Source: Paenisporosarcina sp. HGH0030
GTDB taxonomy: Bacteria; Bacillota; Bacilli; Bacillales_A; Planococcaceae
Direction of reading: 5' to 3'
Assembly: GCF_000411295.1 (NCBI RefSeq)
Contig: NZ_KE150424.1
Span: 1-64,000, forward strand
DNA length: 64,000 bases
In this document: one piece after another, positions 45,048-50,061 of the stretch
Numbering within the stretch: position 1 is the first letter of the stretch
How the letters are laid out: each line of letters begins with the position of its first letter
The notes under the pieces: generated by a model
Database searches by the model: none
What the model saw: the letters and a program-made list of their open reading frames with translations, nothing else
Told to the model about the DNA's origin: nothing
Translations under genes and position numbers: made by a program

Positions 45048-45135
45048 AACTGTTCACCTGCTTAGAAAATAATTATAGTTAAAGAAAATTACTTAATAAT
45101 CTATTTCGGAATAATGCATAGAAAAGAGGATTAAA

Positions 45136-45366
45136 ATGACTGAAAAACAATTAGGAGAAATTTTGTCCCAAATGTATATGAGAGCCCCTGAAGGATACAA
45201 AGTAACATTTATCCATTTGTTTGGAATAAAATATGCAGAAGAAATAATAAAAAACAAATTGAGTATTAAAAAGATACTAGAGTACTCAAATGTGAAACCA
45301 TCATTTGTTACGGAAATTAGTAAGGGAATTAAGTTATCTAGATATGTAACTAATACTATTAATTGA
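45136..45366 (+). CDS. small HTH-like protein, possible R-M controller
   Basis: A 76-residue protein: FIHLFGIKYAEEI, IKKILEYSNVKPSFVTEISKG suggest a helix-turn-helix. AGAGGATT precedes the ATG. It is convergent with the R-M operon and as AT-rich as it, so it may belong to the island and act as a regulator. Similar small HTH-like proteins exist in Bacillales; function not established. Confidence 0.6.
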   Translation: MTEKQLGEILSQMYMRAPEGYKVTFIHLFGIKYAEEIIKNKLSIKKILEYSNVKPSFVTEISKGIKLSRYVTNTIN

Positions 45367-45376
45367 TATTACTCAG

Positions 45377-46510
45377 TTATTCTATTTCTAAAAACTCAAG
45401 TTCTTGAGTTATTCCATTAAAAACATACTTAATTAACTTTAGATCTGACCAATGCATAGTTGCAGCAGGACGACGGCCTTTAACAAAGGTGCGTTTCCCT
45501 GCTTCATTTTTCAACCTAACTACTTCTTCTGGAAAATCTTCAGCAACTACAAAGGCTGCAATCATTGAGTAATCTCCGAAACTATATTCTTGATTAATCC
45601 AATCAACATATTTCATAAGTTGATTGATTACTTCTTTATCAGCAACATCCTTCTTAATTTCTATAGTTAAATATTTCGAGATTGTAGTAAATGAAGGAAT
45701 GAATCGATAACCGAAAATATCCATTTTGTCCATGTAATCTACAGGTTTGAAGGGCGAAGCTACCACTTGATGAGATATGTAATCCCACTTGCCGAAAATG
45801 CCGTCAGGCGTTTTTTTAATATAATCTATAATTCCAGCTTCTATAGCCATTTCATGCCTAATTTTTGATTTAGTAGCAGCGAGACTTAGAATGTTTTTTG
45901 TATTTACTTTATAGTCTTCATTAGTAATCGATTTAATCCGGTTATGTAATTTATCTGAACGTGGAAAAACATTTTGAGGATTTGATATTTCATTTTCATT
46001 TGATTTCAAAATAACATCGATTAATGCTTTATTCTCCACATCATCTATTTTAATAAAAGACAATTTCCATAAAACACGTAACATTTTAAAAGCGCCTGGG
46101 TTAGATGCTAAAACATCGTCCATATCAATTCCATTTTGAAAAAAGTGTGGAGCATTTTCAAAAGTACATAAAAATCGATTTCCTAGGTTAAATGATGTCT
46201 TATTTAAAATCATTTTATTTTTTAGTTTCGAGTAACTCTCGGTCAATGGAATATCTGCACCGGGAAAATTTAAGTGTTTACAGTCGTTGTTAATGTTGAT
46301 TAGTCGACCGATTCCATAAATCTTTCTTTTAATAAAAAAATAAACATTATCTCCCTCGGTCATCGATAAATAGTCAGCAAATGTACCTTCGTGAGGAGCT
46401 AACCAATTATTATTTTTCGAAGGGACATTTAAATTTGTACTATAAACTCCATTTAAAACAATTTCGTTTAAAGAATCGACATTATCGAGAGTAAATATAT
46501 ATCCTGCCAT
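45377..46510 (-). CDS. EVE/PUA-like plus NucS-type PD-(D/E)XK nuclease, R-M accessory
   Basis: A 377-residue protein I do not recognise as a named family. The N-terminal ~90 residues (AGYIFTLDN, FADYLSMTEGDNVYFFIKRK, YGIGRLI) look like an EVE/PUA-type barrel. The C-terminal third has the PD-(D/E)XK pattern of DUF91/NucS: Asp264 (KMDIFG), Glu284-X-Lys286 (TIEIKK) and Gln297-to-Tyr301 (NQLMKYVDWI). ATG 46510 follows AGGGGTGG; GTG three codons earlier overlaps the ribosome site. It lies 11 bases after the restriction gene, so is surely cotranscribed. Possible roles are listed under findings. Confidence 0.7.
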   Translation of the reverse strand: MAGYIFTLDNVDSLNEIVLNGVYSTNLNVPSKNNNWLAPHEGTFADYLSMTEGDNVYFFIKRKIYGIGRLININNDCKHLNFPGADIPLTESYSKLKNKMILNKTSFNLGNRFLCTFENAPHFFQNGIDMDDVLASNPGAFKMLRVLWKLSFIKIDDVENKALIDVILKSNENEISNPQNVFPRSDKLHNRIKSITNEDYKVNTKNILSLAATKSKIRHEMAIEAGIIDYIKKTPDGIFGKWDYISHQVVASPFKPVDYMDKMDIFGYRFIPSFTTISKYLTIEIKKDVADKEVINQLMKYVDWINQEYSFGDYSMIAAFVVAEDFPEEVVRLKNEAGKRTFVKGRRPAATMHWSDLKLIKYVFNGITQELEFLEIE

Positions 46511-46521
46511 GTATTCCACCC

Positions 46522-47901
46522 CTAGAAAGTTATTAAGTTTGCAACGTATTCTTTATCCAACCAAAATGCCTGCTTAGCAATCATCTGTCCATCAGGAAGT
46601 AGTGTTTTATCTTGACCATTCTTCCCTTTAGGACGAATATGGCACAGACCATTTGATTCGGGTGAAGGCAAATCATTTTTTGCAACGATTTTCTTCCCTT
46701 TTTGAATCATTTCAATATGTACACCTTCTAACAATTGTTGTTGGAGATTTTGATGAAAATCTCTCAATCGATTTTCAATTTCATGAAGTGGCATGTTCCA
46801 TAGTTGCACGCCTTTAAAAAATAACTCCCGGTTTTTATTCTCTCTTTCTGTTTCTCTGAATTCAAAAACAACAAATAAAAATTTGGTCTGCTCAAAATGA
46901 TTTTTAAGCCAACTTTCATCCCAATCTTCTTTTGCCCATTCCATAAAATTCACATTTTTAAATGACATGTGTTCACGGGGGATTCCTGAGGGTTCGAGTC
47001 GTATGGTTTTGAACTGTATGTTTGCTTTTGAAAATTCTTCTATGTCATCAAGTTTTGTTCCCTTAATGCCAAGTAAGGCACTAACAAAATCGGGTACAAA
47101 ACTTTTCGATTTATTTATCGTGATGCCATTTTCTAAAGCGATTTGTGAGAGGGTTTTACCAATGTAAGGTGAAAAGCGATCTTGAAGAATTTCTTCAAGT
47201 GTTTTTCTTTCCAATTCTTGGCTATTTGTAAATGAAACTAAGTCATCATTGGATAATAATTTTCTGGCAACACCCGTTATGTAACTTGCTTTTAAACTAT
47301 AAGCTCTTTGCATCGCAAGAAGGGGACTAAAAGGTTGCGTTCTTAAGGATTCTTTATTTTTCCCTTTAGTGCATGCACCTAAGTATATGGTGTCAGCCTC
47401 TGAGAGCTCATGAGCTTTACCGGATTTGATTTTATCGGTAATAAATTTCCAATCGTTCTTAATGATTTGTAAATCTTCTTCACTAAAAGTCAAAAGATGA
47501 CTTTTAAGAACTTGATACTCAGATCGGTGAACTTCAGGAATCCAATGATAGAACATAAGGAGAATCGATTGGTTCTTTGTCCAAAAACTCGATGTTTCAA
47601 ATGTGGTGAGGACTTCTTTATGGTAGTTAATAATATTTAAGACCAATCGTTCTTTAGCAGATATGGTTTTATTTTTGTTTAGTTTCAGTGGAGTAACTTT
47701 TAATTCAATGCCTAAATCTGCAAAATCAGCCTCTGACTTGGAATTTACTTCATACCCAAAAAAACTCTCTTCAATAATCTGGCCGAGCTGTCCTTTTGAT
47801 TTTGGATTTGTAATTCTTCCAGTTAAGTCAATCTCACCAAATGTTTTTCCCTCAGCTTGTTTTGCTTTATAAAGTAATGCTTCCTCTGTCTTATAAATCA
47901 T
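46522..47901 (-). CDS. Sau3AI-family type II restriction endonuclease
   Basis: A 459-residue MutH-fold endonuclease. Near the N-terminus NPKSKGQLGQIIEESFFGYE and EADFADLGIELKVTPL give Glu45 and Asp59-Glu66-X-Lys68, the same spacing as MutH (D-X6-E-X-K). A second, related domain begins near 235 (IGKTLSQIALENGITINKSK) but its strand IQFKTIRL lacks the acidic residue, as in the allosteric C-terminal domain of Sau3AI. Expected cleavage at GATC. It follows the methyltransferase by 75 bases. Confidence 0.9.
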   Translation of the reverse strand: MIYKTEEALLYKAKQAEGKTFGEIDLTGRITNPKSKGQLGQIIEESFFGYEVNSKSEADFADLGIELKVTPLKLNKNKTISAKERLVLNIINYHKEVLTTFETSSFWTKNQSILLMFYHWIPEVHRSEYQVLKSHLLTFSEEDLQIIKNDWKFITDKIKSGKAHELSEADTIYLGACTKGKNKESLRTQPFSPLLAMQRAYSLKASYITGVARKLLSNDDLVSFTNSQELERKTLEEILQDRFSPYIGKTLSQIALENGITINKSKSFVPDFVSALLGIKGTKLDDIEEFSKANIQFKTIRLEPSGIPREHMSFKNVNFMEWAKEDWDESWLKNHFEQTKFLFVVFEFRETERENKNRELFFKGVQLWNMPLHEIENRLRDFHQNLQQQLLEGVHIEMIQKGKKIVAKNDLPSPESNGLCHIRPKGKNGQDKTLLPDGQMIAKQAFWLDKEYVANLITF

Positions 47902-47976
47902 TGATGTAACCCCCTAAAGCAATTAAATACATTATTTGGATTTTACCATATAAAGAAAAAAGCCGATACGATAGTA

Positions 47977-49236
47977 TCAGCTTTGTAAAGACAGTTCCAA
48001 TTGAACGTCTGTAAGTATATTTGTTTTTTCTATTTCTTCGATTCGTTTACCCATTCTTTCAATGAGACCAACAACCAGTGCATTTCCCATACAAAAATAT
48101 CTCATACGATCAGACATAGTATTTGTCCAATTATCATCAAATCCATTGAGTCGTTCACATTCTAAAGGGGTCAAGAATCGTTTTCGACCATTAACTTCTA
48201 CGATGTGAGTGCTTCGATTCGTAGAACCTTCACTAGTTAGCATGGTTCTGCCAGGCTTGTCCAAATCATCCGTAGGAGACATTCCACCTTCGGAAAAGCT
48301 ATAAACATGTCCATCAGCGGTAGTTCGTTCAATTTTTTTAGGACCACGAAGGTAGGCAAATTTCTCACTTGTCGCGTCAGACAGGTAGAACTTTTCATCA
48401 ACTTCAGATTCATCGATAAGAATTTCCCGCAAAGTTACCGATTTTTCTTCTTCAGGAATCACTTGTGTAGTGAAAACTTCTCCATTCTTCATGTAACCCG
48501 CAGTGTGGAACCCAAATGAGAAACTCTCTGATATTGAAACAATGTCAGTTGGAAGGGTTACAGAAGTAATTCTGTCTTTATATGGTTCGTATTCGACTGG
48601 AAAAGGTTTTGCAAAGAAGCCTTCTTTAAAGACAATTTGGTCTTCGGAATGAGTGCTTTGAGCTTTTTCAAAAGCAATCCCATTTTTATATGCAAAGATG
48701 AAAACACGTCTTCTTCTTTGAGCGAATCCATAATCGGCTGCATTAATGACACGCCACTCAACCGAGTAATCTAAGTCTCGGAATGTAGCTAACATTACGG
48801 CAAAATCTCGACCTCGTTGCGATGAAGGGGATTTTAATAGACGGTCTACGTTTTCTAATAGAACATACTTTGGTTGTGTATTCTCGATTATTCGTTTAAT
48901 TTCCCAAAATAAGACGCCTTTTTTACCGTGGAGGCCTTGCTCCCCTGAGAGAGAGCGGGCAACGGAATAGTCTTGGCACGGAAAACCACCAACAACCAGA
49001 CTTGGTTCTAAGTCGACAAAAGTTTCATTTGAAACTGTAGTTATATCTTCATTGGAATGTATTCCAGTACTGAAATTTTTCACATAACAATCGAAAGCAT
49101 CTTGTGCTTTTCGAGAAGGTTCCCATTGGTTCCCCCAAACAACTTCAAATAAATCAGGGTTCGCTTTCTCAAGACCCAAACGGAAGCCACCGACACCAGC
49201 AAATAATTCAATTACTTTTAATTTAGAATCTTGCAT
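47977..49236 (-). CDS. C5-cytosine DNA methyltransferase (M.Sau3AI-like)
   Basis: A 419-residue enzyme with motif I ELFAGVGGFRLGL, motif IV GGFPCQDYS (catalytic Cys), motif VI ENVDRLL, motif VIII QRRRRVF, a target-recognition region (about 250-345) and motifs IX-X ending in MGNALVVGLIERMG. It protects the host from the adjacent endonuclease, presumably as GAT-m5C. ATG 49236 follows AAGGGTG; a longer frame to 49284 lacks a site. First gene of the operon. Confidence 0.93.
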   Translation of the reverse strand: MQDSKLKVIELFAGVGGFRLGLEKANPDLFEVVWGNQWEPSRKAQDAFDCYVKNFSTGIHSNEDITTVSNETFVDLEPSLVVGGFPCQDYSVARSLSGEQGLHGKKGVLFWEIKRIIENTQPKYVLLENVDRLLKSPSSQRGRDFAVMLATFRDLDYSVEWRVINAADYGFAQRRRRVFIFAYKNGIAFEKAQSTHSEDQIVFKEGFFAKPFPVEYEPYKDRITSVTLPTDIVSISESFSFGFHTAGYMKNGEVFTTQVIPEEEKSVTLREILIDESEVDEKFYLSDATSEKFAYLRGPKKIERTTADGHVYSFSEGGMSPTDDLDKPGRTMLTSEGSTNRSTHIVEVNGRKRFLTPLECERLNGFDDNWTNTMSDRMRYFCMGNALVVGLIERMGKRIEEIEKTNILTDVQLELSLQS

Positions 49237-49461
49237 ATACGAACACCCTTTCGCTTTTTCTTTATTATACAACATTTTAACCAAAAGATCAAGATCAAAA
49301 CGTCACGTTATAACATATTTTTTATAGGAACTAGAAAAAATATTATTTACTATAGAAAAGATAGAGACCTCTATATTTTCAGAATTTTCCCTATAATGAT
49401 TGTGGATAATCTGATATCCTTTTAATAAAGCTTTTTTTGCATTTAAATAAAGGAGTTTCGA

Positions 49462-50061
49462 ATGTCCAAACTTCTATTAACTTCAACAGGCTTTTTCCAT
49501 CAAAAAGTCCGAGAACAATTCAATGCACTAATTTCTAATAGAAAGTTCGCAGTCATTATAACGACGGCATCAGCACAAAAAGAATTGAATCCATTTGTCA
49601 TTCAAGCACGCGTTGATTTGCTCGGTATGGGAATTGAACAAGTAACTTTTTTGGATGTAGAAAGGGAGCCAATAGATTGTTTGCAAGCTGCAGATGTTAT
49701 TTATCTAAATGGCGGAAACCCTTTTAGATTGTTGCACGCTCTCAGGGAGAGTGGAGCAGAGAAGCTACTTCAAAAGAGGTCGAAAGAAGATAGTGTCATT
49801 GTGGGCGTAAGTGCTGGGGCAGTGGTGCTCGGCGCATCTATTCGAATTATTGATTGGTTCAGTCCATCATTGAATACGATGAATTTGAAAAATTTCAAGG
49901 GGTGCGAGCTATATAAATCCTCACTGTTTCCTCATGCGGACCGCATAGATCTGTTCCCAGGTACGACTCCCATTGAAGAAAGAATTCAAGCGTTTGAGGA
50001 ATCGTCAGGTGAGCACGTATTGCGTTTGGAGGATAATGAGTTCAAAATACTGAAAATCTAG
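49462..50061 (+). CDS. peptidase S51 (peptidase E-like) family protein
   Basis: A 199-residue class I glutamine-amidotransferase-fold protein with VGVSAGAVVLG (nucleophile Ser) and FPHADRIDLFPG (His). Peptidase E cuts Asp-X dipeptides; Firmicute members such as YgaJ are little studied. AAAGGAG precedes the ATG. The R-M island ends before it. Confidence 0.85.
   Translation: MSKLLLTSTGFFHQKVREQFNALISNRKFAVIITTASAQKELNPFVIQARVDLLGMGIEQVTFLDVEREPIDCLQAADVIYLNGGNPFRLLHALRESGAEKLLQKRSKEDSVIVGVSAGAVVLGASIRIIDWFSPSLNTMNLKNFKGCELYKSSLFPHADRIDLFPGTTPIEERIQAFEESSGEHVLRLEDNEFKILKI

What the first reader, a model, noticed from the sequence alone, without database searches (positions are those of the whole stretch)
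45377..49236. Sau3AI-like R-M operon carries a third, NucS/DUF91-like nuclease gene
The order methyltransferase - MutH-fold endonuclease - 377-residue protein is a single minus-strand operon (75 and 11-base gaps). The third protein has an EVE/PUA-like N-terminus and a PD-(D/E)XK domain with Asp264, Glu284-X-Lys286 and a QxxxY motif as in NucS/RecB-like nucleases. One idea: it is a mismatch nuclease that repairs T:G at deaminated GAT-m5C, a functional equivalent of Vsr, which often sits beside m5C methylases. A second idea: it is a modification-dependent (type IV) restriction enzyme using the barrel to read modified bases. Either would be new for Sau3AI-type systems as far as I know.
Basis: partly seen in the sequence, partly recalled or inferred. 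Interest (0 to 1): 0.75.

Follow-up and report, generated by a model that had tools for sequence, protein, structure and literature searches.

The report
Second nuclease in GATC restriction systems
Beside a common bacterial DNA-cutting defence that targets GATC sits a third gene for a second, apparently unnamed DNA-cutting enzyme; across bacteria and archaea it keeps company with whichever enzyme protects GATC sites, which suggests that it too attacks unprotected GATC rather than repairing DNA.

Summary
The gene layout is real. M is a GATC-type m5C methyltransferase, R a Sau3AI endonuclease (NCBIfam E=7e-169), and the third protein (T, 377 aa) lies 11 bases after R. "Single operon" is only partly right: a strong terminator-like hairpin lies between M and R. 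AlphaFold (pLDDT 94.7) gives T an EVE/YTH (PUA-superfamily) N-domain and a NucS/EndoMS-type PD-(D/E)XK C-domain; D264, E284, K286, Q297 and Y301 are invariant in 60 relatives. In 81 T loci from bacteria and archaea, T lies near Sau3AI R in 52, near the m5C GATC methyltransferase in 54, and in nine beside a Dam/DpnM-type m6A methyltransferase with no R. Ten genomes of that Dam-T group hold no full-length Sau3AI and no DpnII. Genuine Vsr lies beside T in 17 loci, including the 75%-identical Psychrobacillus one, so T is not a general Vsr equivalent. Partners making m5C or m6A, with unchanged T residues, argue that T does not read the host's own mark. Best reading: T is an undescribed GATC-directed restriction endonuclease, the sole known GATC nuclease in Dam-T and M-T pairs and a second one beside Sau3AI. 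Cleavage specificity is inferred, not shown.

The parts
47977..49236 (-). M: C5 cytosine methyltransferase of the GATC (Sau3AI) type
   Evidence: Pfam DNA_methylase 9.3e-72; PADLOC MTase_II PDLC03329 612 bits; homologue paired with Sau3AI R in 20 of 20 sampled T-less loci of the same order
47959..47984 (-). terminator-like hairpin with T-rich tail between M and R
   Evidence: 11 pairs; -13.7 kcal/mol, z -4.64 against shuffles; terminator-like sites in the whole region are not more frequent than in shuffles
46522..47901 (-). R: Sau3AI-family endonuclease (MutH fold)
   Evidence: NCBIfam NF040973 6.8e-169, 562.7 bits against cut-off 300
45377..46510 (-). T: 377-aa EVE/YTH plus PD-(D/E)XK nuclease, the gene in question
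   Evidence: translation; structure; 60-sequence alignment
45977..46510 (-). T N-domain, residues 1-178, EVE/YTH (PUA superfamily) fold
   Evidence: VcaM4I EVE Z 11.3 (rmsd 3.7, 140 aligned), YTH domains Z about 10-11
45398..45895 (-). T C-domain, residues 206-371, NucS/EndoMS-type PD-(D/E)XK fold
   Evidence: EndoMS Z 12.9 (rmsd 2.9, 114 aligned), NucS Z 12.6 (rmsd 2.4, 108 aligned); NucS_C in 40 of 60 relatives
45608..45721 (-). catalytic stretch: D264, E284-X-K286, Q297xxxY301
   Evidence: invariant in 60 sequences
45136..45366 (+). 76-aa HTH_73 protein convergent with T, inside the exchangeable cassette; role unknown, possibly a regulator
   Evidence: HTH_73 7.2e-28; relatives near R in L154 and, in pieces, in L025

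Best explanation
T is a restriction endonuclease of GATC restriction-modification systems. Its NucS-type PD-(D/E)XK domain cuts DNA. Its EVE/YTH-like domain, probably by flipping a base of the site, checks that GATC lacks the self methyl group. Either m5C or m6A at GATC protects the host. In Dam-T and M-T pairs it is the only known GATC nuclease; beside Sau3AI it is a second nuclease sharing the same methyltransferase. Shown here: domains, invariant active site, conserved linkage with GATC-type methyltransferases of both chemistries, and no known GATC endonuclease found in Dam-T genomes. Inferred: GATC specificity, blocking by methylation, base flipping, action as a dimer.
For: Of 81 T loci, R lies within 5 kb in 52, the m5C GATC methyltransferase in 54, and a Dam/DpnM-type methyltransferase in 9, always without R. 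One such partner was compared with the PDB and best matches DpnM (5e-74) then Dam, both GATC enzymes; four tested fall in the Dam subfamily. In eight of the nine, the Dam-type gene lies just upstream of T on the same strand with gaps of 4-158 bases. Ten genomes of the Dam-T group have no full-length Sau3AI and no DpnII. M-T pairs without R occur too (L075, L101), with no Sau3AI elsewhere. Of 14 genomes rechecked because T stood apart, lay at a contig end or had an unclear partner, 11 hold a GATC m5C methyltransferase or a Dam-type gene (partial in one). In the order, 13 T genomes all fall among the 47 of 261 with R (P = 4.6e-11), while M occurs in 48 of 261. Gene order varies widely while the linkage holds. 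The active site is invariant.
Against: No biochemical evidence. EVE/YTH domains of known function usually read modified bases. Where R is present, T would be redundant. The partners' GATC specificity is inferred from homology. Several hosts are incomplete metagenome bins, so absence of another nuclease is weaker there; L094 has a weak MutH-like hit elsewhere. A few T loci lack a recognised GATC methyltransferase (L099, L117: fragments; L129: a different C5 methyltransferase).
Confidence: 0.62

Rival explanations
1. T is a modification-dependent (type IV-like) nuclease that uses the EVE/YTH pocket to cut GATC sites, or other DNA, carrying a non-self modification that blinds the standard enzyme, for example phage-modified cytosine or adenine. 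The GATC methyltransferase sets the self mark that T must not cut.
For: N-domain matches include VcaM4I (reads 5mC/5hmC; PMC7897488) and YTH m6A readers. YTH-like domains fused to PD-(D/E)XK are noted in prokaryotes (PMC7641849).
Against: Dam-T pairs lack any other known GATC nuclease, so T would have nothing to back up. Modification-dependent enzymes of this kind are described as lacking accompanying methyltransferases (PMC7897488), yet T tracks GATC methyltransferases closely. Conserved residues do not switch between m5C and m6A hosts.
Confidence: 0.22
2. T is a mismatch nuclease that repairs T:G at deaminated GAT-m5C, a functional equivalent of Vsr.
For: The nuclease domain is closest to the mismatch nucleases NucS/EndoMS, and most partners are m5C methyltransferases.
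Against: Vsr itself lies near T in 17 of 81 loci, including a 75%-identical relative. In the order Vsr is about as frequent with T (4 of 13) as without (about 7 of 20). Dam-type partners make no m5C. The N-domain takes the EVE/YTH fold; no match of it to the NucS N-domain was seen.
Confidence: 0.06
3. T is an accessory of R: it helps or regulates the Sau3AI enzyme and has no separate restriction role.
For: R and T are close in 52 of 81 loci and often in one run of genes.
Against: T occurs without R beside M (L075, L101) or Dam-type methyltransferases, with no R elsewhere in those genomes; R works in many genomes without T; T keeps a complete nuclease active site.
Confidence: 0.07

Closest known systems
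Sau3AI restriction-modification system
   Same: M and R are ordinary members.
   Different: The usual two-gene system lacks T; 20 of 20 sampled T-less loci in the same order are M+R.
NucS/EndoMS mismatch endonuclease
   Same: PD-(D/E)XK domain fold (Z 12.6-12.9) and catalytic residues as in the NucS_C family.
   Different: The N-domain is EVE/YTH-like; T is linked to GATC methyltransferases; sequence similarity to full NucS is far below the family cut-off (13.7 bits against 216).
EVE-HNH enzyme VcaM4I and YTH-McrB (modification-dependent restriction)
   Same: PUA-superfamily reader fold at the N-terminus.
   Different: Different nuclease domain; T accompanies methyltransferases, whereas those enzymes are described as lacking them (PMC7897488).
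YTH-like domain fused to PD-(D/E)XK in prokaryotes (PMC7641849)
   Same: The same two domain types are mentioned there.
   Different: No link with GATC systems or NucS is mentioned in that paper; whether T relatives were among its hits is not known.
DpnII/MboI GATC system
   Same: Dam-T pairs use a DpnM-like methyltransferase.
   Different: No DpnII endonuclease in the 17 genomes tested; T stands in its place.

Membership tests
Sau3AI-type R-M (M and R genes) | Sau3AI-family endonuclease above curated cut-off with adjacent m5C methyltransferase | tested here: met
   NF040973 562.7 bits against cut-off 300; DNA_methylase 242.6 bits
NucS/EndoMS (for T) | NucS-type PD-(D/E)XK nuclease domain with D, E-X-K and QxxxY | tested here: met
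NucS/EndoMS (for T) | full-length NucS family score above curated cut-off | tested here: not met
   NF003270 13.7 bits against 216; NucS_C 15.9 against 24
NucS/EndoMS (for T) | NucS-type N-terminal domain | tested here: inconclusive
   residues 1-178 match EVE/YTH chains; EndoMS/NucS rows align only residues 206-371, and absence from that list is not proof
Vsr or a functional equivalent (for T) | association confined to m5C methyltransferases and absence of Vsr where present | tested here: not met
   Dam-type partners in 9 loci and Vsr in 17 loci
EVE/YTH modification-dependent (type IV) endonuclease (for T) | PUA-superfamily reader domain fused to a nuclease | tested here: met
EVE/YTH modification-dependent (type IV) endonuclease (for T) | no dedicated methyltransferase partner | tested here: not met
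EVE/YTH modification-dependent (type IV) endonuclease (for T) | cuts only modified DNA | not testable with these tools
   needs a cleavage assay
Type II restriction endonuclease (for T) | linked to a methyltransferase that protects the same site | tested here: inconclusive
   linkage to m5C or Dam-type GATC methyltransferases is shown; that T's site is the same is inferred
Type II restriction endonuclease (for T) | cuts unmethylated and spares methylated sites | not testable with these tools
   needs a cleavage assay
Catalogued type II endonuclease families (for T) | similarity to a PADLOC REase_II model | tested here: not met
   best match among 60 relatives E=0.026; such enzymes often lack detectable similarity

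The most novel reading that the evidence does not exclude
An undescribed family of GATC restriction endonucleases that recruited a modified-base-reader fold (EVE/YTH) to sense the absence of methylation, accepts either m5C or m6A as the self mark, and could therefore switch methyltransferase partner. Beside Sau3AI it makes a system with two unrelated nucleases and one methyltransferase.
Probability: 0.35. Interest if true: 0.75.

Novelty: new variant of a known kind. Interest (0 to 1): 0.62.

Why it matters
Reader domains of the EVE/YTH kind are known for detecting modified bases. One that serves a methylase-paired nuclease across both m5C and m6A chemistries would mean the fold can also police missing methylation. 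It would add a nuclease family to one of the best-known restriction sites, explain a conserved uncharacterised gene in many GATC systems, and raise a testable question: why keep two nucleases for one site? A likely answer is different sensitivity to phage countermeasures.

Tried and rejected
Vsr-equivalent role: rejected as a general role (Vsr coexists; Dam partners). Reading the host's own GATC mark: rejected, since it would be suicidal and the mark differs between hosts. Single three-gene operon: weakened by the hairpin between M and R. Viral or phage origin: P0001 gave no match in annotated phages or viral contigs; the alignment gave one viral contig whose gene set equals that of a bacterial locus (L135 and L111). 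Plasmids: one archaeal hit only. The N-domain profile found no significant PDB sequence hit, so the EVE/YTH assignment rests on fold (plus one relative at EVE E=0.0028). A sequence profile of whole T reached NucS in the PDB only weakly (0.027). Paper searches for Sau3AI with NucS, BstKTI, and two nucleases with one methylase found no description of this gene; subscription papers and REBASE were not searchable. The weak G183 hit was not recovered by the T model in its region and was left out. The iterated M model became contaminated by R sequences, so M counts use single-sequence scores (onwards).

Full report
OBSERVATION. M is a C5 methyltransferase (Pfam 9.3e-72; PADLOC MTase_II 612 bits). 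R is Sau3AI family (NF040973, 562.7 bits against a cut-off of 300). T is 377 aa; alone it matches NucS_C at only E=0.013. R and T are 11 bases apart. Between M and R there is an 11-bp hairpin with a T-rich tail just after the M stop (-13.7 kcal/mol, z -4.6), so M and R-T are probably separate transcription units, although terminator-like sites in the region as a whole are no more frequent than in shuffles.

CASSETTE. A same-species genome (G075) matches the window at 94% identity on both sides but carries other genes in the place of window bases 45064-49447: a 144-aa protein, a NUDIX protein and a PLD/helicase/DUF3427 protein. I read this as a defence exchange site. The window cassette holds M, R, T and a 76-aa HTH_73 protein convergent with T. 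G+C falls to 0.30-0.33 over T, against about 0.40 around the cassette.

FOLD. An AlphaFold model built on 60 relatives has mean pLDDT 94.7 and pTM 0.92. The C-domain (206-371) matches EndoMS and NucS (Z 12.9, rmsd 2.9, 114 aligned; Z 12.6, rmsd 2.4, 108 aligned). The N-domain (1-178) matches VcaM4I's EVE domain (Z 11.3, rmsd 3.7, 140 aligned), YTH domains (Z about 10-11) and small archaeal proteins of similar fold (Foldseek agrees). D264, E284, K286, Q297 and Y301 are invariant in 60 sequences, as are Y23, D46, F58, F59, R62, G66, G68 and D131 in the N-domain; W36 is nearly so.

DISTRIBUTION. In 261 genomes of the order, 14 carry T by a clear match, the window's own genome included (one further weak hit, G183, was left out); 47 carry Sau3AI-like R and 48 the GATC m5C methyltransferase. 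In all 13 neighbourhoods fetched outside the window's genome, R and M are close to T; 13 of 13 falling in the R set by chance has P = 4.6e-11. This test treats genomes as independent, which overstates significance. One genome-contig scan gave 72 loci whose titles name Bacillota, Bacteroidota, Actinomycetota, Pseudomonadota, Acidobacteria, candidate phyla and archaea. An archaeal plasmid copy at 24% identity also sits next to a MutH/Sau3AI endonuclease and a dcm gene.

PARTNERS. In 81 loci (a few are near-duplicates): R within 5 kb in 52; GATC-type M in 54; Dam/DpnM-type methyltransferase in 9, never with R; Vsr in 17; none of these in 13, many of them at contig ends. One Dam-type partner (L090) best matches DpnM (5e-74), and the four tested fall in the Dam subfamily. 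Of 14 hosts with an unlinked or unclear partner, 11 have a GATC m5C methyltransferase or a Dam-type gene somewhere. Three loci (L085, L093, L095) have R and T with a different C5 methyltransferase of about 550 aa. Ten genomes of the Dam-T group have no full-length Sau3AI and none has DpnII; the M-T loci L075 and L101 also lack Sau3AI. Gene order varies widely (R-T-M, M-T-R, M-R-T, D-T, M-T, divergent forms) while the linkage persists, which argues for a functional tie and not a single inherited block. In the tree the Dam-partnered proteins form one group of ten rows (SH-aLRT 94, moderate) among m5C-partnered groups, so partner switching is likely.

MECHANISM. A nuclease that follows GATC methyltransferases of two chemistries, sometimes as the only known GATC nuclease, is best explained as a GATC restriction endonuclease spared by either mark. 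The EVE/YTH domain may flip and inspect a base of the site; that is inference from fold. The conserved residues do not change between m5C and m6A hosts, as expected if the unmodified site is read. T is interrupted in several loci where M and R are intact (L027, L029, L030, L100), which fits a dispensable second nuclease; in L114 M is broken next to an intact T, yet that genome has an intact M elsewhere, as needed for protection.

RIVALS. Vsr equivalence: true Vsr (TIGR00632) lies near T in 17 loci, including the close Psychrobacillus relative; in the order Vsr is no rarer with T (4 of 13) than without T (about 7 of 20). Type IV action on non-self modifications remains possible and would fit the fold; it does not explain Dam-T pairs well. 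An accessory role for R does not fit R-less loci.

KNOWN OR NEW. Modification readers fused to nucleases are known, including YTH-like with PD-(D/E)XK (PMC7641849) and EVE-HNH (PMC7897488); the latter paper describes such enzymes as lacking accompanying methyltransferases. Among 60 relatives the best match to a catalogued type II enzyme model is E=0.026. I found no paper on this gene within the held library, but REBASE and subscription literature were not searchable, so prior naming cannot be excluded.

LIMITS. No cleavage data. Recognition of GATC is inferred from partners. Absence of other nucleases in draft bins is provisional. Pocket residues were not checked on coordinates.

Noticed in passing
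window 45064-49447 against G075 (L162 647-4410): The same chromosomal site in a same-species genome holds a different cassette (144-aa protein, NUDIX, PLD/helicase/DUF3427), so the spot between the GNAT gene and the 199-aa gene at 49462 looks like a defence exchange site.
   Followed up: partly
window 45136-45366 (+): A 76-aa HTH_73 gene convergent with T; relatives lie near R in L154 and, in pieces, between T and R in L025. Possibly a cassette regulator.
   Followed up: partly
L100 4092-6458: A single 788-aa protein fuses a C5 methyltransferase to a Sau3AI endonuclease, next to a separate M and a split T.
   Followed up: no
L085 9121-10779, L093 1374-3071, L095 4889-6586: R and T accompanied by a divergent C5 methyltransferase of about 550 aa in place of the usual M.
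   Followed up: partly
L032 5141-11164: In Haladaptatus, the T-R-M genes lie just downstream of helicase, DUF1998 and PLD genes resembling a DISARM-like set.
   Followed up: no
G126:C2:17903-19114: A full-length GATC-type m5C methyltransferase in a genome with no Sau3AI-like R match.
   Followed up: no
L090 9162-9959: A second, putative DNA methyltransferase follows T in the Carboxydocella Dam-T locus.
   Followed up: no
window 1-64000: GATC is under-represented (135 seen, 234 expected from base composition), though CTAG and GGCC are as well.
   Followed up: no
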